64,000 nucleotides of DNA from a virus. Shown here in pieces: positions 8,588 through 38,923 of this stretch. The first letter of the stretch is position 1. Each line of letters starts with the position of its first letter. The position numbers were made by a program, and so were the translations under genes. The stretch lies in IMG/VR virus record IMGVR_UViG_3300050014_000073, positions 1-64,000 of that record, one strand, 5' to 3'. Under the pieces are notes generated by a model. The model was given only the letters and a program-made list of their open reading frames with translations. It ran no database searches and had not been told where the DNA came from.

Positions 8588-8687
8588 GTTTCAATCCACG
8601 CCGCTCGCGCGGGCAGCGACGACATTTTAGTTACGCTCCTAATGCCACCACCTGATTTCAATCCACGCCGCTCGCGTGGGCGGCGAC
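8588..8687 (-). CRISPR. type I-C-like CRISPR mini-array: two repeats, one 34-nt spacer
   Basis: Two 33-nt repeats (8588-8620 and 8655-8687) flank a 34-nt spacer (8621-8654). On the minus strand each runs from GTCGC to GTGGATTGAAAC/T, the ends typical of type I-C repeats, with an internal GCNGC/GCGGC hairpin. No cas genes are in the window. The minus-strand first repeat ends in T instead of C and continues CAGGT, exactly as the solitary repeat at 36494 does. It lies between the clamp-loader gene and the SbcDC promoter and is transcribed leftward if it shares that direction. Confidence 0.85.
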
Positions 8688-9970: not shown

Positions 9971-11695
9971 TTACTCTCCTTCCTTCTTCTTGACATCGTC
10001 AGCCGGGACAAATTCTAGCGGTCCGTTGAAAAGTAATCTGTAGCCAATCTCCGAGGATTCTCCTCCACCCGTCTTGTTCTTGAGGCATTTCATGATTCCA
10101 CGAATACCGATCACTTCGCCCTTATCCATAATCTTGCTCCCCGCAACGCGGTGAACTCGAACTCGAACGTGGCTGTAGAACTTTGGGGCATTGCCTCCCG
10201 GTGTATGAGAAGAGTCACCAAACGATGATTTGGGGCCTTCACGAAGCTGGTTGACAAGAATGATAAGTGCATTATGAACTTGCGCACATCCTACCCAACG
10301 CCGAAGAAGCCTCCCCATGAAAAGAGGAAGGTCCATATTCGTTCGCATGTTGGCATCTTCAAGGCCCGTGAGGGATTCACCTTCAGTAAGGAGTGCTGCG
10401 ATGGAGTCTAAGACAACAACTCGTTTCGTATGCCCTTTTTGTTGCATTGACGCTTCGATCTCACTACAGAGCTCTTGAGCAGTCGAGAGCCGAGGATTCT
10501 TCTCTTGGTGAGTCTTCCCGGTCTTCTTGTCAACGTAACTGAACTGACCAACATAGGGCTGAATCAAAGTCAGTTTGGATACATCGAGACCAGCCGTCGT
10601 AGCTTCAGGACCGCCGCAGGAAATGCATTCGGTAAGAATAGCAGGGTCTTTCACTGTTGGACGGGTTCCAGTTCCATTGCAGTGCGGGCACTTTGCCATC
10701 CCACGGACCCTTGCCCAACCGGGATCGAAACTGTTCTCGACGTCACCGTATACAACATGGGCCCCGTCGTATTGAGCAAGAGCCGCGATTGACATCACGA
10801 GGGCCGACTTTCCCTGTGAGTTATGGACCACGACGCCGTTCGCAACGAAGTTGTCGATCCCTGGAACGGTCATGTCGTAGACGTCTTCGTAGCCGTAGAA
10901 TTCCACCTTCTTGACTTTGCCGGATCTTCCTTCTAAGTTCCGTTTTGTTGCGTGGTACGAGAGGTGATCGAAGCAAGTCTTCCATTCGAGGTTGTCGACG
11001 GAATGATTATGGTCGTTCTCGTCTTTATGATGCCCGTCCCATTCATCTGTCGGACGATCACCATAAATCTCTGAAAGAATGAACCGATGCTCCGAAAAAT
11101 TCTCACCGTTGTTCAAATGAATTACAGAATGCCCGTTCGTCAGCTTCCGAAAGAAGGGCATGATGCGATCTCCCGGCTTCAGATCTGAAAGTTTTCGGTA
11201 TCCTTGTGACTCCCAATCGTAAGCGGAACTGTACTTCGATCGAGAGGTTGAACGTTCACGAAGCATGAACGGATGAGAAGCAGTCGCGATAATGAACTCG
11301 GGTTGCTTTCCATAGATACGAACTGAGTTCTTAGGGACTTGGAAGGTTACTTTGTAGACAGGACGCTTTCCTACTTTCCAGACACAAGACGCCTGTCGAA
11401 GTACGATGCGTCCTAACTTCTGATCAAAGCCATACACCCATGGCTTGGTCCCGACAAGGTTTTTGATGGGGATTCCTTTCGGGAATCTATCAAGGTCTCG
11501 CGGACAGTCGATTAAAGTTTCTCCGGCGAGACACTCCCACCCAGAAACTTCGATCATCCTCCCATACGGGATTCCGCGATCCTTGTGTCCTAGAACAGTA
11601 TTCAGTCCGGGGATTTTCGTGTCAAGCCAGAGCTGAGGCGTCCATTTGAGAGTAAGATGCCCCAGAGCTTGCCGTATCCTGTCTAATTCAGTCAT
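9971..11695 (-). CDS. RecA-like recombinase interrupted by an intein
   Basis: A 574-residue precursor. The host protein (residues 1-54 plus 293-574) is a RecA/UvsX-type strand-exchange ATPase. The P-loop is rebuilt as GWESQGKSA after splicing, Walker B is VVVLDSIAALL, L1/L2-like glycine regions (HTPGGNAPKFYSH) follow, and there is a CPHCNGTG...CISC zinc-ribbon insertion about 35 residues after the P-loop. An intein occupies residues 55-292. The spliced recombinase would pair with the ssDNA-binding protein encoded immediately upstream. A box-1 copy of the two-box element lies before the gene. Confidence 0.92.
   Translation of the reverse strand: MTELDRIRQALGHLTLKWTPQLWLDTKIPGLNTVLGHKDRGIPYGRMIEVSGWECLAGETLIDCPRDLDRFPKGIPIKNLVGTKPWVYGFDQKLGRIVLRQASCVWKVGKRPVYKVTFQVPKNSVRIYGKQPEFIIATASHPFMLRERSTSRSKYSSAYDWESQGYRKLSDLKPGDRIMPFFRKLTNGHSVIHLNNGENFSEHRFILSEIYGDRPTDEWDGHHKDENDHNHSVDNLEWKTCFDHLSYHATKRNLEGRSGKVKKVEFYGYEDVYDMTVPGIDNFVANGVVVHNSQGKSALVMSIAALAQYDGAHVVYGDVENSFDPGWARVRGMAKCPHCNGTGTRPTVKDPAILTECISCGGPEATTAGLDVSKLTLIQPYVGQFSYVDKKTGKTHQEKNPRLSTAQELCSEIEASMQQKGHTKRVVVLDSIAALLTEGESLTGLEDANMRTNMDLPLFMGRLLRRWVGCAQVHNALIILVNQLREGPKSSFGDSSHTPGGNAPKFYSHVRVRVHRVAGSKIMDKGEVIGIRGIMKCLKNKTGGGESSEIGYRLLFNGPLEFVPADDVKKKEGE
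10820..11533 (-). other. HNH-containing intein within the recombinase
   Basis: It begins at Cys55 (CLAGETLID, block A), has block B TASHPFM, and a central HNH endonuclease domain (WDGHHKDENDHN, then NLEW). It ends with block F and G sequence NFVANGVVVHN before the +1 Ser293. The insertion is exactly inside the Walker A motif of the host protein, a classic intein site that makes activity dependent on splicing. At 238 residues it is a small bifunctional intein with an HNH rather than LAGLIDADG homing domain. Confidence 0.92.
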
Positions 11696-13880: not shown

Positions 13881-14138
13881 TCAGTTTGCTCCGTAAACAG
13901 GCTTCCCGTCTTTCATGATCCAGATGGGCGCTCCGTGGACTTCTTTCTCTTCGAACGCAGGCCGGATCTTAACAGGATACTTGGGCTTATATCCTGTCAC
14001 TGTCGCAGGAACGATGAACTTTAGGCAGATATCGTTTGGCTCGGGATCTCTGCTTGAGACATAATGCTGCGTAGGAAGTCCTTTAGCTCTCTGCCTCTCT
14101 CGCCACTGCCGAATACGTTCTTTCCCAGGAGTAGTCAT
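13881..14138 (-). CDS. hypothetical protein, 85 aa
   Basis: Starts MTTPGKERIRQWRERQRAKG, a basic helix often seen at the N-terminus of small phage proteins. The start at 14138 is chosen because its ATG overlaps the TGA of the polymerase fragment (ATGA). Function unknown. Confidence 0.6.
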   Translation of the reverse strand: MTTPGKERIRQWRERQRAKGLPTQHYVSSRDPEPNDICLKFIVPATVTGYKPKYPVKIRPAFEEKEVHGAPIWIMKDGKPVYGAN

Positions 14139-15049
14139 AATGAAACTACCGGCATCAGGTCGTTCCAATCCTTTGCGTCTATCTCTTTCTGCTTCACACG
14201 CCACTTTGTGAGGAACTCATCTAGAGGCTCGCCTTCGTATTCGATCATGCTTCCCATTGTCATTCCGGCTGTTGCTTCAGCTAGGATAGGAACACGAAGC
14301 TTCAACTTGAACTGCGTTTGGGCGTACTCATAAGCACCAACTTCGAACAAATGCATGAGCTGTTGATGCGCTTTAGCAATATCGCCGAGACGGACAATGA
14401 AATACAACGCATCGTGAACTTCCATGATGCAACGCTGGAGCAGATTATAAGTTCGTGGTTTCAGGTCCAGAAGGGCCAACGCAATGAGAAGGAACTGGTG
14501 AGCCGTTCCTTGAACAGGAGTGTTGATTGCTTGATTCCCCCAGTAGGTACTTCGAGTCGAGTCGTTCTCTCGAATCTCGCGCCGGAATCCGAACAGAGTC
14601 TCTACATAGTGGTTCTTCATAGCGAAGTCTCGCTGGCTATCGATGTAAGCAGCTACTCCACGGTACTTCTTGAAGTAATTGCGATGAAGTTGAATCATTC
14701 GGACTTTAGTGATTCCGGTTAGATCTGCGTTGGCGCCGTCTCTAGCACGTATTCGCGAGACAGTTGAAGGATAGATACTCTCCTCACCAAGACCAAACAC
14801 AATTCCGAAGTGGAGCTCTTTGCACATGCGACGAGTTTTCTTGTCTTTGGCTATACGCTCGAAATCCCATCCTGTGAGAGTATGACCAACTTGGCAGTGG
14901 ATGTCCTTCAACTTATTCTTGCGGTCCAGGGCAGCTTCCTGAAGCTGACGGATGAGTAACGGATCACCAGATATCTCTGCCAAAGCTCTTATCTCTATCT
15001 GGCTTCCATCTGCAGCTAACAAACAAAGAAGATCGGAAACATCTTTCAT
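14135..15049 (-). CDS. family A DNA polymerase, C-terminal catalytic part
   Basis: A 304-residue palm and fingers region of a PolA-type polymerase. Motif A is AADGSQIEIRALAEISGDP (metal Asp retained; Gly replaces the usual Tyr), motif B is RRMCKELHFGIVFGLG (the O-helix), and motif C is IMEVHDALYF. It starts at an ATG overlapping the stop of the N-terminal part (ATGA), with GGAGA 8 nt upstream. The polymerase is therefore encoded as two chains, or the genome carries a -1 shift here. Together the two parts make a complete enzyme. Confidence 0.85.
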   Translation of the reverse strand: MKDVSDLLCLLAADGSQIEIRALAEISGDPLLIRQLQEAALDRKNKLKDIHCQVGHTLTGWDFERIAKDKKTRRMCKELHFGIVFGLGEESIYPSTVSRIRARDGANADLTGITKVRMIQLHRNYFKKYRGVAAYIDSQRDFAMKNHYVETLFGFRREIRENDSTRSTYWGNQAINTPVQGTAHQFLLIALALLDLKPRTYNLLQRCIMEVHDALYFIVRLGDIAKAHQQLMHLFEVGAYEYAQTQFKLKLRVPILAEATAGMTMGSMIEYEGEPLDEFLTKWRVKQKEIDAKDWNDLMPVVSL

Positions 15050-16824
15050 AGAGCTTGTCTCCAATCCTCGTCTGCGATAAGAAGGTTTTGCAGCAAAATG
15101 TTTCCGTGGAGGTTCTGGAAATTTGTGATCCCCTCGGCTTCGGCACGGTCACCTTTTCCGCTTCGCAGCCTCCCAGTGATTGCGCCTGTGAGCCACCAAA
15201 TTGTACGGAGTTCCCCGTCATAAAGGCGTGCTCCCGTCTCATAACCTTTCAAGAACGTTGATTTAATCACACCTAAAGACCGGCGTTTTAGCACAATGTC
15301 TAAGGTGTTATTCTGCGTCTCGGCTTGAAGCAGACGGAGAACGTCTTTCTGAGTGGATCGGCCTTCATCTCCTTGCGGTAGCTGTAAGACGTCGTAGATC
15401 AACTTAGCAACCTGCTCTGGTGCGTTGCAATTGAAATTTGGATCCCCTGAAATCTGTTGGAGTTGCCGGTCGAGCTTCTCGATCATCTCCGGAACGATCT
15501 CCATAGCTTTCTTCCAATTGGGCCAGTCTAAACGGGGACCCCGAGTCTCCATTCGGTCTAGAGTTTTCCCGGCATGAATATAGACCTCGACAAGAGGCTG
15601 GCTGACTTGTGAAGAGAACCGTTGTTCTAGACGTTGCGTGATGTCACAGTCCCCAGAGTTCCTAAGAGAGAGACGGTCTATTGGTGCGTCGGCGAAATGT
15701 CCGCTCCATTCATCAACCGTACTCTTATAGTCACAAAATTCCGGGAAGAACCGATATGTTAAGTTCTCAAGGCTGCAACTTCTCAGAAAGCTGTAGCGCA
15801 AATATGTTCCGTATTGAGTATCATACGAGTAGCCTCGCAACGGAACACGAATAGTTTCTATACAGACGTCTGAATCGTACGAGCCATTCTGCAACGACTT
15901 TTTCAAGTCATGGTCAGCTACTAGTTTTGCAACTCGCTTCCGGATCTCTGAGAGATGAGTAGGCTCGTATCCTGATTGCGGATGATCAACTACAACTGAG
16001 AAGCATCGTCCCGTCCATGAACTAAAATCCTTTGGGTTCTGGTAATGACCCGTCCCGAATCCTGCGAGGAGTAACAGACGCTTCCCGTCTACGACATCAT
16101 CTTCAATGTCGAAACTGACTCGTCGATGCTGCCGTTGTTCAGTTCGTAGAATGCGTTCCATCTCATCGAACTCAGCGAGAGTCCTGACCGTTGTGTAGTT
16201 TTGTGCTTTGACGTAACCCCACCTCCCTGGATGGTCTAGGATCGCTCTAACAGCACGGAAGCGGTCACGCCAGGTAAAGTACTCCCATCCTGCTTGGACG
16301 CCTCCCTGCTGGTAGATGTAGCTTGGATGCCAGGACAATACAACGTAGCAGTCCCACGGTGGGAACCAAAATATGGGCTTGTCTTTCTTGAAGTTCTTTC
16401 CGAGAAGCTGATTCCCGGCAACGTCTCCAAGTATGACGTGAACAGCAGCACGTCCCGCGTTGAGGCGCAAGGCTTCGTCATTATACGGACTACAACACTG
16501 AAGTTCACGTTTGGTAGGTTCATGCTCTTCACCATCCGTCCCAAGAGGTTGACAGCGAAGGACATTGTTCACATCGAACTCTTCTCGCGAAAGTCCGGAG
16601 AGCTTCATCGTATCCCAAAGAAAAGTTCCTGTCGGTCCAACAAGTTCTATACGCTTCGCGTTCTCGTGGCCATCTGGCGACTGAGCCCATAGGAACCCCT
16701 TTCGTCCCTTAATTCGTTCGAGTCTCTTGACTTTGTTGACTCCAGGCATCTTGTCGAGAGGGCACTGCGAACATCCAAGGATTCCTTCACGAGATACCGG
16801 CTGCTCGAAGAGATTGAAAGGCAT
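15046..16824 (-). CDS. family A DNA polymerase, N-terminal part with UDG-like and exonuclease domains
   Basis: 592 residues. The first about 200 resemble the uracil-DNA-glycosylase superfamily (CSQCPLDKMPG, then WHPSYIY), as in the polymerase of phage SPO1. Next comes a 3'-5' exonuclease with SFDIEDD and NGSYDSDV, and then the thumb-like region up to ITGRLRSGKGDR. It stops just before motif A. The start at 16824 is chosen because the clamp gene stops 4 nt earlier. The longer in-frame extension upstream would overlap the clamp gene by 230 nt. Confidence 0.85.
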   Translation of the reverse strand: MPFNLFEQPVSREGILGCSQCPLDKMPGVNKVKRLERIKGRKGFLWAQSPDGHENAKRIELVGPTGTFLWDTMKLSGLSREEFDVNNVLRCQPLGTDGEEHEPTKRELQCCSPYNDEALRLNAGRAAVHVILGDVAGNQLLGKNFKKDKPIFWFPPWDCYVVLSWHPSYIYQQGGVQAGWEYFTWRDRFRAVRAILDHPGRWGYVKAQNYTTVRTLAEFDEMERILRTEQRQHRRVSFDIEDDVVDGKRLLLLAGFGTGHYQNPKDFSSWTGRCFSVVVDHPQSGYEPTHLSEIRKRVAKLVADHDLKKSLQNGSYDSDVCIETIRVPLRGYSYDTQYGTYLRYSFLRSCSLENLTYRFFPEFCDYKSTVDEWSGHFADAPIDRLSLRNSGDCDITQRLEQRFSSQVSQPLVEVYIHAGKTLDRMETRGPRLDWPNWKKAMEIVPEMIEKLDRQLQQISGDPNFNCNAPEQVAKLIYDVLQLPQGDEGRSTQKDVLRLLQAETQNNTLDIVLKRRSLGVIKSTFLKGYETGARLYDGELRTIWWLTGAITGRLRSGKGDRAEAEGITNFQNLHGNILLQNLLIADEDWRQAL

Positions 16825-16828
16825 TTCC

Positions 16829-17887
16829 TTACAAATCTGCTGCGAGAATGACGTTGTTCCGCGTTCCGTCCGTACAACGGAACACGCTGGCATTCGAGGT
16901 CTTAGCGAAAGTGACTTCGCATTCATCGTCGATCCCCGTAACGTATTCGAACCATGACGTAATACGGCGAACGGGCCACTTGACAGAAGCTGGCAGCGGA
17001 GTTCCTGTTTTGACAAGATCAATCGAACGTTGGAACTTGCTCGTATTAAGATCAACTGTCACAGTCAGGACGTTTGCCTTGACTTCGATCTCAGCAGCTT
17101 CGTTTTTGTCTACCAGAAATTGACTTGCTACCTGAAGAGCTTTGAGAAGCTCAGATCCTTTGATGACTGCGACGGCTGGGGATTTGACTCTCTCAGCAAG
17201 AGCATCTTTGCACTTGTCGATGGGGTATCCGGCAAGTTTCACGGACAGTGACTGGTAGACGTATCCGTTGGAGAGATCGACGCCGACGCCCGTCTTGTCA
17301 GCGGCAATCTTCCCGTCGTGACCAACGAGGAACTTTGCTACTTCAGCCGGTAGCATGAAATCGTGTTTGACGAGACTTCCAAGACATGCCATCATGAACA
17401 GCGTGTCCGTGACGAGAACTCCGTATCCAGAGCCAAAATAGACAGCCTCGACGTTTTCAGTTCCAGCCATGTTCGGGAGATACTTCACGGCAGTCTTGAG
17501 AGTGGTCTTCTGGTCGTCAGTCAAATCGAACGAGGCAGCGGGCTTCCAGCTTTCATATCCCGTGACGGGAGTGCGTGCGGCGACTTCGAGACGCTGACCG
17601 GACTTCAGCGTGAGCTTGTCTTTCGCGCAGTAAATCTCGATCTCGGTTCCGGTCGCAGTATCTAAGAACGCTTTCAAAGGGCGGCGGTCTAGGAACGACG
17701 TCCAGGCTCCTTTTCCTTCCGTTCCAGCGGCGTGAGCTTCCGCCCAGAGAGCTCCGGTAAGAGCAAGTGATATACTCTTGCCATCTGACTTCAGTCTAAC
17801 GAATTGACTGGAGTCTAGGACGGGACTTGTCTGAACGGAGTCAACGATCTTGAAAGCAGCTTGTAGGTCTTTGGTAGAGATTTTCAT
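16829..17887 (-). CDS. sliding clamp (DnaN-like processivity factor)
   Basis: A 352-residue protein with three repeated alpha/beta segments and the end CTDGTRNNVILAADL, resembling the last strand of bacterial beta clamps. Sequence similarity is distant, but the length, the location directly upstream of the polymerase and the presence of a clamp loader support the call. It starts in an ATGA overlap with the upstream small gene. A clamp would tether the polymerase to DNA. Confidence 0.65.
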   Translation of the reverse strand: MKISTKDLQAAFKIVDSVQTSPVLDSSQFVRLKSDGKSISLALTGALWAEAHAAGTEGKGAWTSFLDRRPLKAFLDTATGTEIEIYCAKDKLTLKSGQRLEVAARTPVTGYESWKPAASFDLTDDQKTTLKTAVKYLPNMAGTENVEAVYFGSGYGVLVTDTLFMMACLGSLVKHDFMLPAEVAKFLVGHDGKIAADKTGVGVDLSNGYVYQSLSVKLAGYPIDKCKDALAERVKSPAVAVIKGSELLKALQVASQFLVDKNEAAEIEVKANVLTVTVDLNTSKFQRSIDLVKTGTPLPASVKWPVRRITSWFEYVTGIDDECEVTFAKTSNASVFRCTDGTRNNVILAADL

Positions 17888-28167: not shown

Positions 28168-28371
28168 ATGGAATCCTATGCACTTGTCATATCGGAACAG
28201 TATCGTATCCTAGTTCACGAAGCAGGACTGAAAGAGGGTCGGAGTGGGAAGATTATGTATCCCGGTCCACTTCCTGTAGGAGCAATCCTGAAAGCTGACT
28301 GGGATCAGGGAGTTGAAGAGGGTCTCAAGGTGTTCAAGCAATCCAAGTCTCGCGAGAGGCTAGATTGCTAG
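28168..28371 (+). CDS. small hypothetical protein, 67 aa
   Basis: Unrecognised. Overlaps the following pyrophosphorylase gene by 7 nt and follows the P-loop gene by 10 nt, so it belongs to the same transcript. Confidence 0.55.
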   Translation: MESYALVISEQYRILVHEAGLKEGRSGKIMYPGPLPVGAILKADWDQGVEEGLKVFKQSKSRERLDC

Positions 28372-29162
28372 ACGTCATCACTTTCGGAGAGACGCTCTTA
28401 CAAACACGGGACCTCGATCCAGTATACGTTATGCTGTACCGTTCTCAATTTTCGTTCTTCCAAAAAGAACGCTTTACCGTAGCGTACTGGCTATTCTATC
28501 ATTCAGGAGTTTCTGCACTGCTTTCTGAAAAGATGGGGCATGCGTTCTGGGACGCTTGCCAGGAACAGTTAACTCTTGCTCCAAGGGGAACGGAGAGACG
28601 ACACTTCCGTGGATCTGCTGCAACGAAAGCAGTCCAGGCTCTTCATAGTCTCTATCCAGATCCTGAAGATTTTGTGGAAGCAATGTGTCCATCTCAGAGT
28701 ACATGCGAGACGTTCCACACAGTTTCATCGCGAGTGGAAAAGCTTCCGCAGTTCGGACCTTGGATTGCTTTCAAAGTCTGTGATATGCTAGAACGTGTTC
28801 TAGATCGTCAGATTGATTCCTCAGGATGCATAGATCTTTGGTTTCGAGAGCCTCTTACTGGTGCAGAGAAAGCTGCTACTGCTTTCTCTCTTCCTTCCCG
28901 CGATGCTGCGATTCAGTTCCTTCTTGAGAAGTTTCATAGCTGGGGCGCTCCACCTGACTACAAGCGTAAAGTCAACTTGCAGGAGATCGAAACAATCTTA
29001 TGCAAGTGGAAGGCACATCTTGGAGGCCATTACGAGATTGGGAAGGATACTTACGAGATATTGCATGGACTCCGAAAGTATTCCTCACGCTCTTCTAGTG
29101 CTGCGCACCTGATAGACTGTTTGCAAGAAGGGACTTTGTGCAAGAGGAATACTCTTTGCTGA
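28365..29162 (+). CDS. alpha-glutamyl/putrescinyl-thymine pyrophosphorylase-like (amino acid:DNA transferase)
   Basis: 265 residues, TTG start. Motifs RFTVAYWLFYHSGVSALLS, PRGTERRHFRG and FGPWIAFKVCDMLERVL match the helix-hairpin-helix DNA-glycosylase-derived family that displaces pyrophosphate from 5-(PP-oxymethyl)uracil in DNA and attaches an amino acid or polyamine. A DNA-base kinase that would make the substrate is the next gene and a second member of the superfamily follows. The nucleophile added cannot be told from sequence. Confidence 0.8.
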   Translation: MLDVITFGETLLQTRDLDPVYVMLYRSQFSFFQKERFTVAYWLFYHSGVSALLSEKMGHAFWDACQEQLTLAPRGTERRHFRGSAATKAVQALHSLYPDPEDFVEAMCPSQSTCETFHTVSSRVEKLPQFGPWIAFKVCDMLERVLDRQIDSSGCIDLWFREPLTGAEKAATAFSLPSRDAAIQFLLEKFHSWGAPPDYKRKVNLQEIETILCKWKAHLGGHYEIGKDTYEILHGLRKYSSRSSSAAHLIDCLQEGTLCKRNTLC

Positions 29163-29737
29163 AACCACCTCACGTTCCGGTTATCAACATCCGTGGAGTA
29201 AACGGAAGTGGGAAGAGTTATCTAGTCCGTTCTTGGATGAAACTGCTTGGAGCGAAACCATATCCGCAGCGGTCAAATTTGTTTGGAGGAGAGACTGCAA
29301 CTGGAGCGGAGTACTATTTGCTTTCAGACGATGGAAGGGTGATCGGGGACTACCGTACCAATTGCGGAGGCTGTGACCGCATCCACTCCCAAGATGAAGT
29401 TGCGGACCATATTCGGTTAGGGATTTCCTCTGGTTCACGTTACGTTCTGTTCGAAGGTGTGATTCTCTCAACAGTGTTTGAGTATTGGCATCAGTTCAGC
29501 CAGTCCATCAACGGGATGCTCTGGGTCTATCTTGACACCCCACTGGAAGTTTGTTTGAAGAGGGTTTCCGAGCGAAACAAGAACAAGGCATTCAAAGAGA
29601 ATCTCGTTCGGGACAAGTTCCGGCAGGTTGCTTCCACGCGCCGTCGAGCAGAAGCCGCTGGAGAGAAAGTGTTTGAGATTCATTGGGAGAACGCAGAGAA
29701 AGAGCTAGAAAACCTCATAGCAGGATTAAACATATGA
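29138..29737 (+). CDS. P-loop 5-hydroxymethyluracil DNA kinase-like
   Basis: 199 residues, GTG start. Walker A GVNGSGKSYLVR, a Cys-rich loop (RTNCGGCDRIH), a VLFEGVIL strand as Walker B, and a lid with CLKRVSERNKNKAF. It resembles the P-loop kinases that phosphorylate 5-hydroxymethyluracil in phage DNA to 5-(PP-oxymethyl)uracil. Its overlap with one pyrophosphorylase gene and ATGA coupling to the next supports this. Overlaps the upstream gene by 25 nt. Confidence 0.75.
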   Translation: MQEEYSLLKPPHVPVINIRGVNGSGKSYLVRSWMKLLGAKPYPQRSNLFGGETATGAEYYLLSDDGRVIGDYRTNCGGCDRIHSQDEVADHIRLGISSGSRYVLFEGVILSTVFEYWHQFSQSINGMLWVYLDTPLEVCLKRVSERNKNKAFKENLVRDKFRQVASTRRRAEAAGEKVFEIHWENAEKELENLIAGLNI

Positions 29738-29859
29738 AACTTCCTAAAGTTCGTATGCTCCGGCAGATTCTATATTGGATGGAGGAGCGACAGAGACGAA
29801 TGCGCCTGGCAAACGCCGCCGTATGGGTGTTACGGAAACAGAAGAGGAGACTTATATGA
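29734..29859 (+). CDS. 41-aa paralogue of the next protein's N-terminus
   Basis: MKLPKVRMLRQILYWMEERQ repeats the start of the following protein (MKLPPVRNLKKFLWFMEERQ). It is joined at both ends by ATGA overlaps. It looks like a duplicated and truncated N-terminal helix module; it may be a fragment, or a small partner peptide, since the frame is intact and translationally coupled. Confidence 0.6.
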   Translation: MKLPKVRMLRQILYWMEERQRRMRLANAAVWVLRKQKRRLI

Positions 29860-30773
29860 AGTTGCCTCCGGTAAGGAACTTGAAGAAGTTTTTGTGGTTT
29901 ATGGAGGAGCGCCAAAGGGTTTATTTAAGGCGACAGGCAGGTGAACCTTATCCTTGGACTTCGGATCCCATCTTACGCCGCTTTCGATTTTGCAATGTTT
30001 ATCGAGAGCAGGATCGGGTGACGACTTTTTGGCGAGAACGTTGGGCAAAGAAATACGCTGATCACTCGAACTTATGGTTTGCTGCTTGCTTGTTTCGGCA
30101 CATCAACTGGCCCAATACGCTCGAAGAAATTGGATTCCCCAAAGAGTGGAATCCTCGTAAGGTCCTTCGCATTCTCGAGAAGCGGAAAGCACGGGGAGAT
30201 AAAGTCTACACAAGTGCTTATCTTCTCGGAGGCGGAAACACCAAGCATGAAACCAAAGTCCGCTACACGGTGATGACAGTATTGAATCCTGTGTGGAAGT
30301 GGGTTGAGAAGGCTCTTCCTGGAACGGGTCGTATTGCTCCTTGGTTAACTGACGGAACTGATGACGTTCCCTGTACGTTACGCGAAATGTTCGATTGGCT
30401 CTGCCAGTTCCACGGCTTCGGGAAGTTTCTCTCCTACGAAATCGTCACCGATCTTCGTCATACTCGTTATCTATGCAACGCTCCTGACATAATGACTTGG
30501 GCGAATCTCGGTCCGGGAGCGCAGCGCGGATTGAACCGTCTTTACGAACGGGAGCTGAATCAGTCACATCCCCAGGCTCAGCTTCTCGAAGAGCTTCTGG
30601 CAATTCAAGAGTGGGTGGTTAAGAACCGTGATTCGAGAGTTCTTCCTACGATAGAGCCACGAGATCTCGAACATAGTTTTTGCGAGTGCGACAAACTTCT
30701 TAGAGCCAAGGAGCGCCTTGTGCAAGGACGTATAATCGGTCTAGAAAGATTCAGACATCCAGGCTTGATTTGA
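29856..30773 (+). CDS. alpha-glutamyl/putrescinyl-thymine pyrophosphorylase clade 1-like
   Basis: 305 residues. EPYPWTSDPILRRFRFCNVYRE with EQDRVTTFW is characteristic of clade 1 of this family, followed by FHGFGKFLSYEIVTDLRHT in the helix-hairpin-helix part and a C-terminal DLEHSFCECDKLLR. Predicted to add an amine-bearing group to pyrophosphorylated 5-hydroxymethyluracil in DNA. Start at 29856 is chosen because the 41-aa upstream gene ends there (ATGA) and AGAGGAGA precedes it. Confidence 0.82.
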   Translation: MKLPPVRNLKKFLWFMEERQRVYLRRQAGEPYPWTSDPILRRFRFCNVYREQDRVTTFWRERWAKKYADHSNLWFAACLFRHINWPNTLEEIGFPKEWNPRKVLRILEKRKARGDKVYTSAYLLGGGNTKHETKVRYTVMTVLNPVWKWVEKALPGTGRIAPWLTDGTDDVPCTLREMFDWLCQFHGFGKFLSYEIVTDLRHTRYLCNAPDIMTWANLGPGAQRGLNRLYERELNQSHPQAQLLEELLAIQEWVVKNRDSRVLPTIEPRDLEHSFCECDKLLRAKERLVQGRIIGLERFRHPGLI

Positions 30774-31296: not shown

Positions 31297-32190
31297 TTGA
31301 AGATCTTCATCCCCACTAAAGGACGTCCGGTTCGGATCAGTACTCACAAGTACTTCCCTTCCGCTTACGTTGTTGTACACAACGAGCAGGAAGCGGAGCA
31401 GTATCGCGCGAATGCAACGATCGATCCTAAACGGATTCTCATTAGTGGAGCGAAGACCGATGCGTTCGGCCTAACTCGACAACGTGAATGGGTGTGCCAG
31501 ACGCAAGCAAAGAAGAATGAGTGGATTCTGTTCGCTGACGATAACATCTATTACTTGCTAGCGATGGATAAGGAACACTATGGTTTTCCAGAAGTTCTAC
31601 TGACGGCAGACCATACCAGATTGTCGGAAGAAGAGAAAGCGACGGCTCGCAAGGAAGGTGCGATCTGGCGTCCTCGTTTCAACACGCGAGTCCCGGTAGA
31701 ACGGTTCTTGAGGGAGATCGTTCCGGATACAGTTTCTCATTGTGAGATTATCGGAGCACACCTTGCAGGGTTTTCTCTTACAGATAACATCTTATTTCGG
31801 CGAAAGAAGTTTGTTGACGTCGGATACGTCATAGGCAAGTTGATGCTCTGGCACAACACTGGGCATGTCCCCTTCGACCATACAGTCACGATGGAAGACT
31901 TCTATCACACAGCCGAGAACCTGAAGCGATACGGAGTTTGCGTAGTAAACAACTTCGTTGCGGTCCGCCCGACGAATTGTCACTATCTTCCAGGCGGAAT
32001 GGGAACGTATGACGAGCGAGTTCCGTATCGCAAGCGGGACGTGGAAACTTTGTTAGCACGGTATCCTGGGATGTTGGCAGTGAAGGACAGAGAGGGATTT
32101 GTTCCAGGAACTGACTTGCGTCTTCTCTTGCATTCACGTGAGGATGTTCAACGATGGCAACGAGCGCAGAAGCGCACAAGATTGTTTTAG
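31297..32190 (+). CDS. TAGT-like DNA-base glycosyltransferase
   Basis: 297 residues, TTG start. GT-A type features: IFIPTKGRPVRISTH at the N-terminus, GLTRQREWV, then the metal-binding WILFADDNIYYLLAMD, and later GAHLAGFSL. This resembles the TET-associated glycosyltransferase family, which adds sugars to hydroxymethylpyrimidines in phage DNA. The neighbouring kinase and pyrophosphorylases support a DNA-base role. Could also act on another acceptor. Confidence 0.65.
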   Translation: MKIFIPTKGRPVRISTHKYFPSAYVVVHNEQEAEQYRANATIDPKRILISGAKTDAFGLTRQREWVCQTQAKKNEWILFADDNIYYLLAMDKEHYGFPEVLLTADHTRLSEEEKATARKEGAIWRPRFNTRVPVERFLREIVPDTVSHCEIIGAHLAGFSLTDNILFRRKKFVDVGYVIGKLMLWHNTGHVPFDHTVTMEDFYHTAENLKRYGVCVVNNFVAVRPTNCHYLPGGMGTYDERVPYRKRDVETLLARYPGMLAVKDREGFVPGTDLRLLLHSREDVQRWQRAQKRTRLF

Positions 32191-32199
32191 GAGGATTTG

Positions 32200-33222
32200 A
32201 TGCGAACTGTGGATCTTAGTCGTGGTGAGCAGGTTCGTCTGTTCAACGGTTTGGCAATCGAGATTGCAAGCAAGTGCAATCGAACTTGCTACTTCTGCCC
32301 GAACGGATACAACCAGCGTGAAGATGTCTTCATGCTGGAGGAAACGGTCTCACGTTTGCTGGAAGAGCTCTCACGCTTGAAGTACTCTGGGCGTATCGAG
32401 TGGTACATCTACAACGAACCGACACGTGACGAACGGCTGAAGATGTTCATTCGTTGGGCGCGAGTTCAGGTTCCGCGCGCTTGCCAGATGATCAACACGA
32501 ACGGTGACTATTTCAAGGATAAGTTTGACATCGCTGCATTGTTCTTTGCTGGTCTCAATCAGATGCAGATCAACATCTACAGCGCGCAGGATAACGCAGA
32601 GAATGATAAGACGTTTGAGAACGGCGTTGCGCAAGCGCGAAAGCGTGAAGCGCAGCTACAATCGTGGGTTGATAAGATCTCCCCAACAATGAATATCCAT
32701 TCGGATGCGAGTCTCTACTTGAACTCAGGCCCGCGAAAGCGTATTTGCAAAGTCGTGGCGAAGTATGGCGTCCGTCCCAGTTTCAAGGATAGTGATCTCG
32801 AGGGGCCAAATCACTTCTCGAACCGCAGTGGAAACATTCCTGGTTTCCGCAATGGGCTTACAGAACCACTGAAGAAGATGTGTGTGCGCCCGTTCAGGTT
32901 TCTCAATATAGATTACCAGGGCGATGCCCTTCTTTGTTGTAACGACTACCATGGAGTTGTTAAGATCGGGAACGTGAAGGACCATACGCTGGTGGAATTG
33001 TGGAACTCTTCGGTTCTCAATCGTTATCGTGTCAAGTTGCAAGGTCATGATCGTAATTCAGCACTGTGCGACAAATGCGACTACAACGGGGGACACTATC
33101 AACATCAGGTGGGACACGTTACGACGGGGTCAGCGGAACAGGATGTGGAGTGGGTACAGGAGCCGTTTTATCCGGGCGGACTGGTTCAGATCGCGCCGAA
33201 GACGGATAAGAGGTTGATTTAG
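32200..33222 (+). CDS. radical SAM enzyme with SPASM domain
   Basis: 340 residues. The [4Fe-4S]-SAM motif CNRTCYFC is near residue 27. The TIM-barrel core is followed by a C-terminal SPASM-type Cys cluster (CVRPF, CCNDY, CDKC) for auxiliary iron-sulfur clusters. In phage thymidine hypermodification, radical SAM enzymes rearrange amino acid groups already attached to the base; SPASM members also act on peptides. Start at ATG 32200 with GGAGG just upstream. Next to the glycosyltransferase with a 9-nt gap. Confidence 0.85.
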   Translation: MRTVDLSRGEQVRLFNGLAIEIASKCNRTCYFCPNGYNQREDVFMLEETVSRLLEELSRLKYSGRIEWYIYNEPTRDERLKMFIRWARVQVPRACQMINTNGDYFKDKFDIAALFFAGLNQMQINIYSAQDNAENDKTFENGVAQARKREAQLQSWVDKISPTMNIHSDASLYLNSGPRKRICKVVAKYGVRPSFKDSDLEGPNHFSNRSGNIPGFRNGLTEPLKKMCVRPFRFLNIDYQGDALLCCNDYHGVVKIGNVKDHTLVELWNSSVLNRYRVKLQGHDRNSALCDKCDYNGGHYQHQVGHVTTGSAEQDVEWVQEPFYPGGLVQIAPKTDKRLI

Positions 33223-33360: not shown

Positions 33361-34374
33361 ATGCAAGTAATACGAGTAAGAAACATCAACCAAGCGTGGG
33401 ATCATGCAAAGATCCTTCTCAATGCCAATCACACAACTCGTCCCAGTCGGGTCGGGGAGGTGATTGAATACCCCGACCCAGTCACGACGGTCTACGAGAA
33501 GCCGTGTGAGCGTGTCCTCTTCAATGAGAAGCGGAATGCTAATTGCTTTTTCAATTTCATGGAAGCAATGCATATGCTTGCGGGCCGAAATGATGTCGCG
33601 TGGCTGGAACGATTCAATTCCAAGATTCGCGATTTCATCGGTAACGTGGAAGTGCAGCATGGTGCATACGGCTACCGCTGGCGAAAGTTCTTCGACATGG
33701 ACGGGGGCGCAGAGGATGACTATGCGGACCAGATTCTCAAGATCATTCGGATGCTGAAGAAGAACCCCGATGAACGCCGCGCTGTTCTTACCATGTGGAG
33801 TCCGTTGGCGGACTTGGAACGACCAGATCTTGCAGACGTGCCGTGCAATTTGATCTGCACGTTCAAGATTCGAGGCGGTGCTCTCGACATGATTGTCTTC
33901 TGTCGTTCAAATGACATTGTGTTTGGCGCGTATTCTGCAAATCAAGTGCACTTCAGCTTTCTGCTGGAGTACATGGCTTCTATGATCGGAGTACCGGTTG
34001 GGCGTTACTTTCAGATCTCGGACTCTTGGCACGCTTACACTTCTCGTTGGTCCGAATTTGGCGGTCTTGATCCCACTCCGACGATTGATCGCTATGCGTT
34101 GGGCATGGTTCCGTTCCCGCTGGTTGATCATCCTGAGACGTGGGACGAAGATCTGAAGCGGTGGATGGAACGAGACTTCACGCAAGAGTTCTCCAATCGG
34201 TTCTTCTCACGAGTTGCTGAGCCGATGTGGCTCTCATGGTCAGAATACAAGCATAACAATCTCGACAACGCAATTAGGGTTATACGGAATTGTGATGCAG
34301 CTGACTGGCGCTGGGCGGGAACAGAGTGGTTGCTCAACATCCAGAGGAAGCGAGCAGAGAAGGGGAAGAAATGA
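33361..34374 (+). CDS. thymidylate synthase family, probable dUMP hydroxymethylase
   Basis: 337 residues. HGAYGYRWRKF, the catalytic Cys in DVPCNLICTF, RSNDIVFGAYSANQVHFSF and FQISDSWHAY are in thymidylate-synthase order. The Asn of SANQ that reads the uracil ring is kept, so dUMP rather than dCMP is the likely substrate. Beside a 5hmU kinase and pyrophosphorylases a dUMP hydroxymethylase is more likely than a plain thymidylate synthase, but the two cannot be separated by sequence alone here. Confidence 0.8.
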   Translation: MQVIRVRNINQAWDHAKILLNANHTTRPSRVGEVIEYPDPVTTVYEKPCERVLFNEKRNANCFFNFMEAMHMLAGRNDVAWLERFNSKIRDFIGNVEVQHGAYGYRWRKFFDMDGGAEDDYADQILKIIRMLKKNPDERRAVLTMWSPLADLERPDLADVPCNLICTFKIRGGALDMIVFCRSNDIVFGAYSANQVHFSFLLEYMASMIGVPVGRYFQISDSWHAYTSRWSEFGGLDPTPTIDRYALGMVPFPLVDHPETWDEDLKRWMERDFTQEFSNRFFSRVAEPMWLSWSEYKHNNLDNAIRVIRNCDAADWRWAGTEWLLNIQRKRAEKGKK

Positions 34375-34562
34375 GACAGGAAGATCCAAAGTCGACTTTA
34401 ATTGAACGATTTCGGGTATGGCGTCTCTTCTGGGTTGCTTGCCGTGTCCCGAGACGGAACGATCTCTATATCAACAAGAACGGCTTGCTTCAACGTTGTA
34501 AGACGACGAACTACTCGCGTCGCGCTCAAAAGCGTACAATTGTGAAAGAGGGATGGAAGTGA
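34371..34562 (+). CDS. small basic protein, 63 aa
   Basis: Unrecognised, Arg/Lys-rich (RVWRLFWVACRVPRRND). Start ATG overlaps the synthase stop (ATGA) and its end overlaps the HD gene by 10 nt, so it is accepted as a coupled gene. Confidence 0.55.
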   Translation: MRQEDPKSTLIERFRVWRLFWVACRVPRRNDLYINKNGLLQRCKTTNYSRRAQKRTIVKEGWK

Positions 34563-35149
34563 AGAATCTTTTTGAAAATCTGATGTGGTTCCGAAGATTT
34601 GGTTCAACGAGACGCTTCCATTCTGAGACGTTCATCGGAACACCAGAGACAGTTCTACACCACTCTGCTAGTACAGCTCTTATCCTGATTCAGGTCTTAG
34701 GAGAAAACGTCTCCGTCAACTTGCTCAAGGCTGCTCTGTGCCACGATCTCGAAGAGGGACTTACAGGCGACGTCCCCGCGCCGGTCAAGTGGGCTATTGG
34801 AAATACGTTCGAAGAGTTGGAGCGTCGGATTCGTGTGTTCCACGATATTCCGTTCCCAGGATTGAACGGCGAGGAACAGCATCAGCTCAAGGCTGCGGAT
34901 TTTCTGGACTGCGCGATGACGTGTCTCATGCAGCGAAAGATGGGGAACTCTCTAATTGATACGGTTTTCGAGAACTTAGTCGAGTATGAAAACCGAAGTC
35001 CGATCTTGGGCTACGTTGAGACAATTCTGTTCCTCTATCTCTGGCGAGAAGTCAAAGCGGAATACAGACAGACGGTTAGCGGAAGCCGATATGGAAGCGT
35101 CGGTCACCCCTTCTGGAGTCAAGATGCCAAAAGTGAGAAGCAAAGCTGA
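34553..35149 (+). CDS. HD-domain deoxynucleotidase (YfbR/DatZ-like)
   Basis: 198 residues. RRFHS, ETVLHHSAS, ALCHDLEEGLTGDVPAPVK and KAADFLD supply the H...HD...D metal site of HD phosphohydrolases. This fold includes YfbR 5'-deoxynucleotidases and phage DatZ, which removes dATP in 2-aminoadenine phages. Here it could clear a competing normal nucleotide (dTMP/dTTP or dATP). A PurA/PurZ relic lies 600 nt downstream, which makes the DatZ reading worth testing. Confidence 0.75.
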   Translation: MEVKNLFENLMWFRRFGSTRRFHSETFIGTPETVLHHSASTALILIQVLGENVSVNLLKAALCHDLEEGLTGDVPAPVKWAIGNTFEELERRIRVFHDIPFPGLNGEEQHQLKAADFLDCAMTCLMQRKMGNSLIDTVFENLVEYENRSPILGYVETILFLYLWREVKAEYRQTVSGSRYGSVGHPFWSQDAKSEKQS

Positions 35150-35741
35150 GTTCTTCCGGCTGTCACAGGAAATGGTCTTCGGGAATCGTCTTCAGCAATT
35201 CGGGTGGAAACTCTTCGATGAAATGTTTCAAGACTGCCGGAACGCAAGATGTATTGGTCGCGAACCTTGGTACGATAGCGAACTTCCTCCTATGCCTGAA
35301 AAGGTCAGTGTTAGGAACGTACTTGCAGGTGGCGATGAACGGGTTCAACGGTATCGTCTCGGACCAGCTTTCGCTCATGCTCATTGTGTCTCGTTGATCA
35401 AGACCCACATCGTCACTCCTGAACAGCTCATACTTGATGAGAGTGCTCCAGATCATCTAGTCACGTTGCAAGCAGAAGTCCGGAATAGCGAAAGGTTTAT
35501 TGACATGCGATTCGCGCTGCATTCTGGAGTAGGGATGCGACCTGCTTATGCCGCAATGAAGCCCGTGAGTGGGATTCGGGCCGTGACAATCCTGAAAGAG
35601 TACCTGGACGCACCGTCTTGGGACAACCTCTGTGAAATTCTTCATGTATATAGCGAAAGTGTCGTAGAGCTGAGTTCGTACTCAGTTCCAGTAGGAGTTC
35701 TGGGTCTCTCGACAATTATTTGGGAAGTGAGGAATTATTGA
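35124..35741 (+). CDS. hypothetical protein, 205 aa
   Basis: Unrecognised. Starts MPKVRSKAEFFRLSQ, helical, with the repeated pattern FGNRLQQFGW. The ATG at 35124 is chosen for the GGAG 6 nt upstream. It overlaps the HD gene by 26 nt and ends just before the PurA/PurZ relic. Position suggests a part in base modification; no motif proves it. Confidence 0.6.
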   Translation: MPKVRSKAEFFRLSQEMVFGNRLQQFGWKLFDEMFQDCRNARCIGREPWYDSELPPMPEKVSVRNVLAGGDERVQRYRLGPAFAHAHCVSLIKTHIVTPEQLILDESAPDHLVTLQAEVRNSERFIDMRFALHSGVGMRPAYAAMKPVSGIRAVTILKEYLDAPSWDNLCEILHVYSESVVELSSYSVPVGVLGLSTIIWEVRNY

Positions 35742-35742
35742 T

Positions 35743-35978
35743 ATGAGAGTTCTTGTTGTTGTTGGTGGCCAGCCTGGATCTGAAGCTAAAGGAAAGGCAT
35801 GCGTATTTGTCTGGATTACCTAGACGCAAAGGACAGAAACGTTCGTAGGAGCGTCGATTTGGGTAAGAGATCTCACAAGTTCCTTCACGAGTTGGAGACC
35901 CGTACGGAACTGAGAGTAGGTCTTGCATTCACAGGTCCGCATCAAGACGATCTCGTTTATTGGGATTCTGTTTTGTGA
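35743..35978 (+). pseudogene. relic of adenylosuccinate synthetase (PurA/PurZ)
   Basis: ATG 35743 encodes MRVLVVVGGQPGSEAKGKA, the N-terminal P-loop of PurA/PurZ (GGQxGSExKGK), then stops after 26 codons. In another frame ICLDYLDAKDR, then KFLHELETRTELRV and TGPHQDDLVYWD resemble the C-terminal end of the same family. About 260 internal residues are missing. PurZ makes the precursor of 2-aminoadenine DNA. The gene is clearly dead or reduced to a 59-codon open frame (ATG 35799). Confidence 0.7.
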
Positions 35979-36009
35979 TGTCAATCTCCTTTTGCCAAAA
36001 ACCATTCGC

Positions 36010-36038
36010 TTTACTTTTCTATCGCGTTAGGGTAAAGT
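36010..36038 (+). promoter_or_regulatory. possible sigma-70-type promoter
   Basis: TTTACT, 17-nt spacer, TAAAGT. The -35 side shares CGCTTTACTTT with the promoter at 26680. The -10 is weak (4 of 6). It lies in the gap after the PurZ relic and would serve the small genes from 36146. Confidence 0.4.
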
Positions 36039-36062
36039 AGTAAGTTAAAGTACTCTTTGGGG

Positions 36063-36081
36063 TCCTATCTCGTTGATAGGA
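36063..36081 (+). terminator. short hairpin in the 36.0-36.1 kb gap
   Basis: TCCTATC-TCGTT-GATAGGA, a 7-bp stem. No T-tract; a leader structure or weak terminator. Confidence 0.35.
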
Positions 36082-36145
36082 TTAGCTTGCGGCGCGAGTA
36101 GAGACGTTTTCAACGGCTCGTTTGCCAGACAGGTGACCATACTCC

Positions 36146-36523
36146 GTGTCTCCTCGTAAATCACACAAGCTTCTTAAGGGCCCAGCTCTGTCCGAGATCC
36201 TTCGGGTCACAGTTCACCAAGTCAAGTGGTTCGTCGCGGGCCAGCCTACTCTTTTGATTCCTCCTTCAACGGCGCTTGCTCTTGTGAGAGAGGGCGAGTA
36301 TGAAGGTAAGGCAAGTGCCCAGCGAGTCTACTACATACGTGAAATTGACAATTGTCCAAAGCCTGTATGCAATCCTTCGTATTGGGACGACCGTGCTGTC
36401 TACCCTGGTGAAACAGATTCGCCTTCACGACATACTGTAGACCTCTGGGACCAAATTCTCAAGCGCCGTTCCAGTCGCGTAGCTGTTCAAGTTGTCGCCG
36501 CCCACGCGAGCGGCGTGGATTGA
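36146..36523 (+). CDS. hypothetical protein whose 3' end is a CRISPR-like repeat
   Basis: 125 residues from a GTG. The N-terminus (SEILRVTVHQVKWFV) could be a short helix-turn-helix; the rest is unrecognised. The last 10 codons, including the stop, are the solitary type I-C-like repeat at 36494-36526, so either the repeat was inserted at the end of the gene or the frame is only open by chance. Confidence 0.5.
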   Translation: MSPRKSHKLLKGPALSEILRVTVHQVKWFVAGQPTLLIPPSTALALVREGEYEGKASAQRVYYIREIDNCPKPVCNPSYWDDRAVYPGETDSPSRHTVDLWDQILKRRSSRVAVQVVAAHASGVD

Positions 36524-36526
36524 AAT
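36494..36526 (+). CRISPR. solitary type I-C-like CRISPR repeat 1
   Basis: 33 nt, GTCGCCGCC... to GTGGATTGAAAT, with a GCCGC/GCGGC stem. Identical over 33 nt, plus CAGGT beyond, to the first repeat of the mini-array at 8655-8687 (reverse strand). No second repeat lies nearby. Candidate RNA-based anti-CRISPR (Racr) unit. Confidence 0.85.
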
Positions 36527-36540
36527 CAGGTATTTGAAGA

Positions 36541-36873
36541 ATGGCTTCTCCTTCTTCCGGTTTCCTCGCAGCGTCGCTTTCATCTGCAGCTCCCGCTATT
36601 AGTTCCCGCCTTCGTTCCTCTGTTCGTTCCGCTCTTAACTCGCATCAGTCATTGAAAGCCGTCCGCGGTCGCGGATCAGAAGTTCAGTCACATCGTTCAG
36701 CTCTTGTCTACTTGCGCGAGCTTGAAGCTGAACTTTGTTTGGTCCAGAACTTGTTGTTGGACGCTTGGAAAGAGTGCGACTACTCGCGGGATTTCCGGAA
36801 GTTTATTCGTCATACTGACCAGGCTCAGCAGCGACTTCATCAAGCGATCAAGAAGCTTGCCAGGACCGTATAA
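36541..36873 (+). CDS. hypothetical protein, 110 aa
   Basis: Ser/Ala-rich N-terminus then helical sequence (LVYLRELEAELCLVQNLL, AQQRLHQAIKKLA). Unrecognised. It ends ARTV-stop, the stop lying in the ACCGTATAAT motif for the next gene. Confidence 0.55.
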   Translation: MASPSSGFLAASLSSAAPAISSRLRSSVRSALNSHQSLKAVRGRGSEVQSHRSALVYLRELEAELCLVQNLLLDAWKECDYSRDFRKFIRHTDQAQQRLHQAIKKLARTV

Positions 36874-36874
36874 T
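36865..36874 (+). promoter_or_regulatory. ACCGTATAAT junction motif before 36881
   Basis: Overlaps the stop of the 36541 gene; the TATAAT hexamer ends 6 nt before the ATG at 36881. Candidate leaderless promoter. Confidence 0.5.
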
Positions 36875-36880
36875 CAGGTT

Positions 36881-37054
36881 ATGAGAAATTGGAAAGACGA
36901 TCCAAAGGCAGTTGAGGCAGTTGAGTATCTTCTGGGCATCGGAATGAATGCGGACGAGTTCCTTCAAGCAGATATAGAAGAGAGCAGTGATTTGGAATCT
37001 GATGATGCCGATCCGGAAGTAGAAAGCCGTATTCATGAGGTTGTTGAGGAATAG
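36881..37054 (+). CDS. small acidic protein, 57 aa
   Basis: Starts MRNWKDDPKAVEAVEYLL and becomes strongly acidic (EESSDLESDDADPEVE). The start is defined by the TATAAT motif 6 nt upstream. Function unknown; highly acidic small phage proteins sometimes mimic DNA, which is only a suggestion. Confidence 0.6.
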   Translation: MRNWKDDPKAVEAVEYLLGIGMNADEFLQADIEESSDLESDDADPEVESRIHEVVEE

Positions 37055-37055
37055 T

Positions 37056-37319
37056 ATGCCTATCCGTCAATGCAAGAACGGCCACCTGACAGGCTTTCGA
37101 AACTGTTCACTATGCGGCAGCAAGCAGACTCGTGATGTAGCGTGGAAGGCAGTTGCATCTCCTGATGTTGAGGAAGTTGCATCTCCTGCTGCAGAAGTGA
37201 AGCCTCTTCACGTTTCGTTCCTCAATCAGTTCCGGGTTTGGAGAGAGAAGCATCGGAAGGCTGTTCAGCTTCGATTGCGTACTGCACGTTGGGGATTCAA
37301 GGTGCACGAGAGGATATGA
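37056..37319 (+). CDS. small zinc-ribbon protein, 87 aa
   Basis: CKNGHLTGFRNCSLCGSK gives a C-x3-H...C-x2-C type site, followed by an Ala/Val/Glu linker and a basic tail (WREKHRKAVQLRLRTARW). Probably nucleic-acid binding. ATG is 1 nt after the upstream stop; it ends in an ATGA overlap. Confidence 0.6.
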   Translation: MPIRQCKNGHLTGFRNCSLCGSKQTRDVAWKAVASPDVEEVASPAAEVKPLHVSFLNQFRVWREKHRKAVQLRLRTARWGFKVHERI

Positions 37320-37534
37320 GCAGTGAAAGGCAGAGACAAGAGGCGAAGAGCCCAGTCGCGAAGGCGGACAGCTTTGGAGCACCGCTATACGACGAGCAAT
37401 ACGACTACTGGCTCCTCAAGTCTTACAGCAATCCCCGAAATGGTCTCTGGATCAGAATTGAGCTGGTCCGAGCAATTCGAGACACAGGCCAATCCAGAAA
37501 GTCCGATCTTTTTGGAGGGGGTGGAATGAAATGA
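37316..37534 (+). CDS. small hypothetical protein, 72 aa
   Basis: MSSERQRQEAKSPVAKADS, then a Tyr/Trp-rich middle (YDEQYDYWLLKSY). The frame is preferred over an overlapping one because both its start and stop form ATGA overlaps with neighbours. Confidence 0.55.
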   Translation: MSSERQRQEAKSPVAKADSFGAPLYDEQYDYWLLKSYSNPRNGLWIRIELVRAIRDTGQSRKSDLFGGGGMK

Positions 37535-37794
37535 GCACTCACGTTGTTATCATCGACCGTGACAGCTTCACTCCTCGGCATCTGGAAGCACCGAATCAGT
37601 TCATCATTGAAGTCAACTCCCAAGGCTTCAACGCATACCAGACTACGAGCAAAGGCGAGCGTGAACTGATAGCAACTAGTGCCTCCGTTCTCACGTTTGC
37701 TGCAGTCATGGCGAGGATTATCCATGACGCAGGCTTTGCTGAGCAAGTTCACTTCCTGGCCGTGAAGCTGGACCCGATGGAGGTCAAGCCGTGA
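37531..37794 (+). CDS. small hypothetical protein, 87 aa
   Basis: Unrecognised alpha/beta protein; ATGA-type overlaps on both sides. No motif beyond a possible dimer-like helix (FAAVMARIIHDAGF). Confidence 0.6.
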   Translation: MSTHVVIIDRDSFTPRHLEAPNQFIIEVNSQGFNAYQTTSKGERELIATSASVLTFAAVMARIIHDAGFAEQVHFLAVKLDPMEVKP

Positions 37795-38066
37795 TCACGA
37801 TTTGGAAATACCCTCTTCGTGTTCAATGTGAACAGAACATTGATATGCCTGAAGGTGCTCAGGTCCTCTGCGTACAGAATCAAGGTCCTGTTCATACACC
37901 TCTTCCTTTCCTTTGGGCGAAGGTTAACACTGAGAAGAAACTCGTTCCGAAAAAGATCTTGATTCGGGGAACAGGACACCCATTGGAAGGGGACGCGCAT
38001 TATATAGGAACGTTCCAGATAGATGGAGGAGATCTTGTCTTCCACGTCTTCGAGAGGTTTCTATGA
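37791..38066 (+). CDS. conserved phage protein, 91 aa (DUF7352-like)
   Basis: GTG start. The pattern IDMPEGAQVLCVQNQ, LWAKV, IRGTGHPL and FHVFER matches a small beta-sandwich family common in phages. Function unknown. Coupled to both neighbours by 4-nt overlaps. Confidence 0.7.
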   Translation: MITIWKYPLRVQCEQNIDMPEGAQVLCVQNQGPVHTPLPFLWAKVNTEKKLVPKKILIRGTGHPLEGDAHYIGTFQIDGGDLVFHVFERFL

Positions 38067-38890: not shown

Positions 38891-38923
38891 GTCGCTGCCC
38901 GCGCGAGCAGCGTGGATTGAAAC
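38891..38923 (+). CRISPR. solitary type I-C-like CRISPR repeat 2
   Basis: 33 nt, GTCGCTGCC... to GTGGATTGAAAC, with a GCTGC/GCAGC stem. It differs from the 36494 unit at paired positions in a way that keeps pairing. It lies in the gap before the terminase small subunit. Candidate Racr unit. Confidence 0.85.

What the first reader, a model, noticed from the sequence alone, without database searches (positions are those of the whole stretch)
35743..35978. Dead PurA/PurZ gene beside an HD nucleotidase
The N-terminal P-loop of an adenylosuccinate synthetase-type enzyme and a C-terminal fragment remain, with the middle lost and the frame broken. PurZ plus an HD dATPase (DatZ) make 2-aminoadenine (Z) DNA in some phages. 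The ancestor of this phage may have had Z DNA and replaced it with thymine hypermodification, or carried both.
Basis: partly seen in the sequence, partly recalled or inferred. Interest (0 to 1): 0.72.

Follow-up and report, generated by a model that had tools for sequence, protein, structure and literature searches.

The report
Dead PurZ-type gene in hypermodified-thymine phage
A phage whose genes predict elaborately modified thymine also carries the two ends of a broken gene of the kind that makes the alternative base 2-aminoadenine, so its lineage once held that gene, but nothing else of the pathway is left.

Summary
The pseudogene is real. A PurZ profile searched against all 1,859 six-frame open stretches of the window ranks the two pieces first (19.0 bits, E 5.6e-5) and second (10.5 bits, E 0.022). 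They lie on the same strand, in the right order, and match the two ends of the protein. One NCBIfam adenylosuccinate synthetase model matches both, at positions 1-23 and 281-330 of 337. The P-loop reads GGQPGSEAKGK, with the serine that marks phage PurZ where PurA has catalytic Asp13. About 270 codons are missing, across an out-of-frame junction near 35,799.

The HD part of the reading fails. The neighbouring HD gene belongs to the thymine-hypermodification cassette: it lies just downstream of the thymidylate synthase homologue in M6, Bordetella CN2 and many metagenomic phages, and falls outside DatZ. No MazZ-type, dUTPase, DmtZ-type, DatZ or convincing DpoZ gene was found in the 83-kb record. 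None of 48 PurZ-type records carried the hypermodification marker; none of 25 hypermodification records carried PurZ.

Most likely an acquired PurZ-type gene died by one internal deletion. An ancestral Z genome is possible but unsupported. No close relative was found, so an assembly artefact is not excluded.

The parts
35743..35799 (+). N-terminal piece of PurZ-type gene: start codon and P-loop, MRVLVVVGGQPGSEAKGKA
35797..35803 (+). deletion junction with frame change (approximate, inferred from where homology stops and resumes)
   Evidence: sequence
35799..35978 (+). C-terminal piece of PurZ-type gene, ending ...TGPHQDDLVYWDSVL and a stop codon
34553..35149 (+). HD-domain nucleotidase of the thymine-hypermodification type (not DatZ), HD motif intact
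35124..35741 (+). orphan gene, 205 aa, no relatives found, between the HD gene and the remnant
33361..34374 (+). thymidylate synthase homologue, probable dUMP hydroxymethylase
32197..33222 (+). radical SAM/SPASM protein
31297..32190 (+). TAGT-type glycosyltransferase
29775..30773 (+). HMUDK_hel (aGPT-PPlase-type) protein, used here as hypermodification marker
29138..29737 (+). 5-hmdU DNA kinase
28365..29162 (+). amino acid:DNA transferase (ADDT)

Best explanation
A PurZ-type gene (serine-bearing short adenylosuccinate synthetase family, the kind that joins aspartate to dGMP on the way to dZTP) was once an intact gene just downstream of the thymidylate synthase/HD genes of a thymine-hypermodification cassette. 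A single out-of-frame internal deletion of about 270 codons (about 800 bp) removed the substrate-binding core and left a non-functional relict of 236 bp. The sequence shows the two ends, the order, the serine and the broken frame. Inferred: that one deletion did it, that it is recent (no further stop in either piece), and that the gene arrived by horizontal transfer. The HD enzyme is a separate part of the hypermodification cassette, probably a nucleotidase that lowers competing thymidine (or other) nucleotides; this function is inferred from context only.
For: The two pieces are the first and second best PurZ-profile matches among 1,859 frames, beyond shuffles, and match the two ends of one NCBIfam model. 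Ser stands at the PurA Asp13 column, where E. coli PurA has Asp; PMC12884076 reports Ser in all 147 phage PurZ/PurZ0 sequences. TS followed by HD is conserved in M6, Bordetella CN2, MW202897 and 11 metagenomic loci. All 25 hypermodification records tested lack PurZ. In the relatives inspected the HD gene is followed by other small genes or the polymerase, not by PurZ, so the orphan gene and the PurZ remnant look like a lineage-specific addition.
Against: Each piece alone is weak by sequence. No relative with the intact gene at this site was found, so insertion and deletion are inferred rather than seen. The contig is a metagenomic assembly, so the deletion could be an assembly join.
Confidence: 0.7

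Rival explanations
1. The ancestor had a 2-aminoadenine genome, or Z paired with hypermodified T, and PurZ is the last remnant of that pathway.
For: PurZ-type Ser in the P-loop; position directly after a DNA-modification cassette.
Against: No MazG/MazZ, PF04447, dUTPase or DmtZ-type domain in the record and no tblastn match to Z-phage accessory proteins except a weak HD match. The HD gene is not DatZ. The family A polymerase is at best 27% identical to DpoZ over short stretches. None of 48 PurZ-type records carries the hypermodification marker.
Confidence: 0.13
2. The deletion is an assembly artefact or present only in part of the viral population, and the real phage has an intact gene.
For: Metagenomic contig with no independent copy; both pieces are well preserved and have no stop inside, as expected if the gene is intact elsewhere.
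Against: No direct evidence for a misjoin; the flanking genes are continuous and in frame.
Confidence: 0.12
3. The ancestor gene was a PurA-like enzyme for ordinary adenine synthesis (auxiliary metabolism), not a PurZ.
For: The top NCBIfam model for both pieces is a plain adenylosuccinate synthetase model, marginally ahead of the PurZ model for the N piece. The C piece is nearest to a Bacillus phage purA whose product was not tested.
Against: Ser instead of the catalytic Asp13, which PMC12884076 reports as Asp in 99% of PurA and Ser in all phage PurZ.
Confidence: 0.12
4. The 59-aa C-terminal ORF, which starts ATG behind AGGAAAGG, is now a small gene of its own.
For: Open frame with a purine-rich stretch upstream (sequence).
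Against: That stretch is the P-loop coding sequence; the piece lacks any complete fold or active site of the family, and no conserved short homologue was found.
Confidence: 0.04

Closest known systems
PurZ / PurZ0, 2-amino(deoxy)adenylosuccinate synthetase of Z phages (phrog_1211; phiVC8, SH-Ab 15497, Arthrobacter phages)
   Same: P-loop GGQxGSExKG with Ser at the Asp13 column, and a C-terminal segment ending in a TGP motif, at the expected ends
   Different: About 270 central codons missing, frame broken; no companion Z genes; this phage has a thymine-hypermodification cassette
PurA-like protein of Bacillus phage vB_BpsS-140
   Same: Best match of the C piece in 50,697 phage records (33% over 48 residues, at its C-terminus); GSE P-loop
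   Different: Intact 373-aa gene in a phage without the HMUDK_hel marker
Yuavirus M6 TS-HD module (gp58-gp59)
   Same: Thymidylate synthase homologue directly followed by an HD hydrolase, with ADDT, kinase and HMUDK_hel homologues
   Different: M6 lacks PurZ; two small proteins and the polymerase follow the HD gene instead of the orphan gene and the remnant

Membership tests
PurZ-type adenylosuccinate synthetase (ancestry of the remnant) | Homology to the family at both termini in the right order | tested here: met
PurZ-type adenylosuccinate synthetase (ancestry of the remnant) | Ser replacing the catalytic Asp13 of PurA | tested here: met
   criterion from PMC12884076
PurZ-type adenylosuccinate synthetase (ancestry of the remnant) | Complete catalytic core | tested here: not met
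   profile positions about 22-288 absent; 236 bp in all; so a pseudogene, not a working member
PurZ versus PurZ0 subgroup | Placement in a supported clade | tested here: inconclusive
   GGQxGSE resembles PurZ0 and vB_BpsS-140 more than phiVC8 (DLQFGST), but under 80 residues remain
Z-DNA pathway | Companion genes MazZ, DatZ, DpoZ or DutZ/DmtZ | tested here: not met
   the record may be incomplete
DatZ | HD protein groups with characterised DatZ | tested here: not met
   small FastTree of 16 sequences separates DatZ+YfbR (0.949) from the window HD; best PHROG is 6047 (E 4.7e-21) against the dATPase PHROG 7076 (E 2e-6)
DatZ | dATP triphosphohydrolase activity | not testable with these tools
   needs an enzyme assay
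Thymine-hypermodification cassette (M6-like) | TS homologue, 5-hmdU kinase, HMUDK_hel and ADDT homologues together | tested here: met

The most novel reading that the evidence does not exclude
An ancestor of this phage made DNA in which both partners of the A:T pair were replaced, 2-aminoadenine opposite a hypermodified thymine, and dropped the Z half.
Probability: 0.08. Interest if true: 0.75.

Novelty: new member of a known kind. Interest (0 to 1): 0.36.

Why it matters
In the records searched here, PurZ and the thymine-hypermodification marker never occur together, and this remnant is the only trace of PurZ in a hypermodification phage. It shows that the gene can reach such a phage and be lost, and it names a place to look for a doubly modified phage. 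It also corrects a tempting inference: an HD nucleotidase beside a thymidylate synthase homologue is a hypermodification gene, not evidence of Z DNA.

Tried and rejected
Relatives of the HD protein and of the orphan 205-aa protein in viral contigs: none. Relatives by TS, HMUDK_hel and terminase: distant only, none with PurZ. One degenerate DNA search for the SEAKGKA P-loop found L013, an unrelated phage with a PurZ-type gene cut by the contig end; the same search in 84,980 genomes and a C-terminal pattern in viral contigs found nothing. The orphan protein is unrelated to the second Z gene of SH-Ab 15497 and PSA28, and its structure prediction was too poor to use (pLDDT 38). Literature searches for PurZ together with 5-hydroxymethyluracil found no paper; a search for PurZ with hypermodified thymidine listed four papers, of which only one was opened on this point, and it did not report both in one phage.

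Full report
Observation. The window is bases 1-64,000 of an 83,140-base metagenomic virus record. At 35743 an ATG opens a 26-codon frame carrying VVVGGQPGSEAKGKA; 35799-35978 in another frame carries a segment ending TGPHQDDLVYWDSVL. A profile built from PurZ-type proteins of viral contigs (extracted) and two phage proteins was run without filters on every six-frame stretch of at least 20 residues. The two pieces came first and second of 1,859 (E 5.6e-5 and 0.022; next best 3.1 bits). Shuffles do not reproduce this. The N piece covers profile positions 3-21 and the C piece 297-343 of 347; by eye the C piece extends back to about 289 (MRICLDYLD against VRLALTMLD). NCBIfam places both pieces at the two ends of one adenylosuccinate synthetase model. 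Pfam's model found neither, as expected for such short pieces.

What kind. The P-loop has Ser where E. coli PurA has Asp. Poubanne et al. 2026 (PMC12884076) report Asp13 in 99% of PurA and Ser in all 147 phage PurZ/PurZ0 sequences. The remnant is therefore PurZ-type by this mark. Under 80 residues remain, so the subgroup cannot be resolved; plain PurA ancestry is not fully excluded.

How it broke. Homology stops near codon 19 (35,799) and resumes at the same place in another frame, with about 270 codons missing. A single out-of-frame deletion is the simplest account. No stop interrupts either piece within its own homologous part, which suggests a recent event; this is inference.

The HD neighbour. 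The HD protein matches YfbR-like Pfam and PHROG 6047 better than the dATPase PHROG. In M6 (gp58-gp59), Bordetella CN2, MW202897 and 11 of the metagenomic loci an HD gene follows the TS homologue. In five of these loci (L108-L111, L120) a gap of about 0.7 kb separates the two. Among 83 phage records matching the HD protein most are Pseudomonas (M6-like) and Bordetella phages. A small tree puts it apart from DatZ and YfbR (only 16 sequences, moderate support). So its presence says nothing about Z DNA. What the HD enzyme acts on was not tested.

The Z pathway. MazG, PF04447, dUTPase and nucleoside deoxyribosyltransferase families have no match in the record, and proteins of Z phages match nothing but the HD gene weakly. 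The polymerase is not clearly DpoZ. Of 48 records with PurZ-type genes none carries HMUDK_hel (two other records being positive controls); of 25 hypermodification records none carries PurZ. Many of these records are fragments, HMUDK_hel marks only one kind of hypermodification, and several records are near-duplicates, so the absence is suggestive, not proof.

Relatives. No close relative of this phage was found by HD, orphan, TS, HMUDK_hel or terminase proteins. The decisive comparison, the same site in a close relative, is missing.

Conclusion. A genuine PurZ-type pseudogene, best read as an acquired gene that died by deletion in a thymine-hypermodification phage. The ancestral-Z reading is possible and weakly supported.

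Noticed in passing
window 8589-8620 and 8656-8687 (-), 36494-36525 (+), 38891-38922 (+): Four copies of a 32-nt sequence GTCGC(C/T)GCCC(A/G)CGCGAGC(G/A)GCGTGGATTGAAA that resembles a type I-C CRISPR repeat: two as repeat-35 nt-repeat, two solitary, none expected by chance. Solitary repeats can be RNA anti-CRISPRs (PMC10651486); no exact copy in 84,980 genomes, no Rfam match over 34000-38000, and the 35-nt spacer has no good phage match. Resemblance to type I-C is from memory.
   Followed up: partly
window 9971-11695 (-): RecA/UvsX-like gene interrupted by an intein-splicing domain with HNH-like matches.
   Followed up: no
window 14135-15064 and 15046-17055 (-): Family A DNA polymerase in two overlapping ORFs, the first with an N-terminal uracil-DNA-glycosylase-like domain.
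   Followed up: no
window 35124-35741 (+): Orphan 205-aa gene without detectable relatives, between the HD gene and the PurZ remnant.
   Followed up: partly
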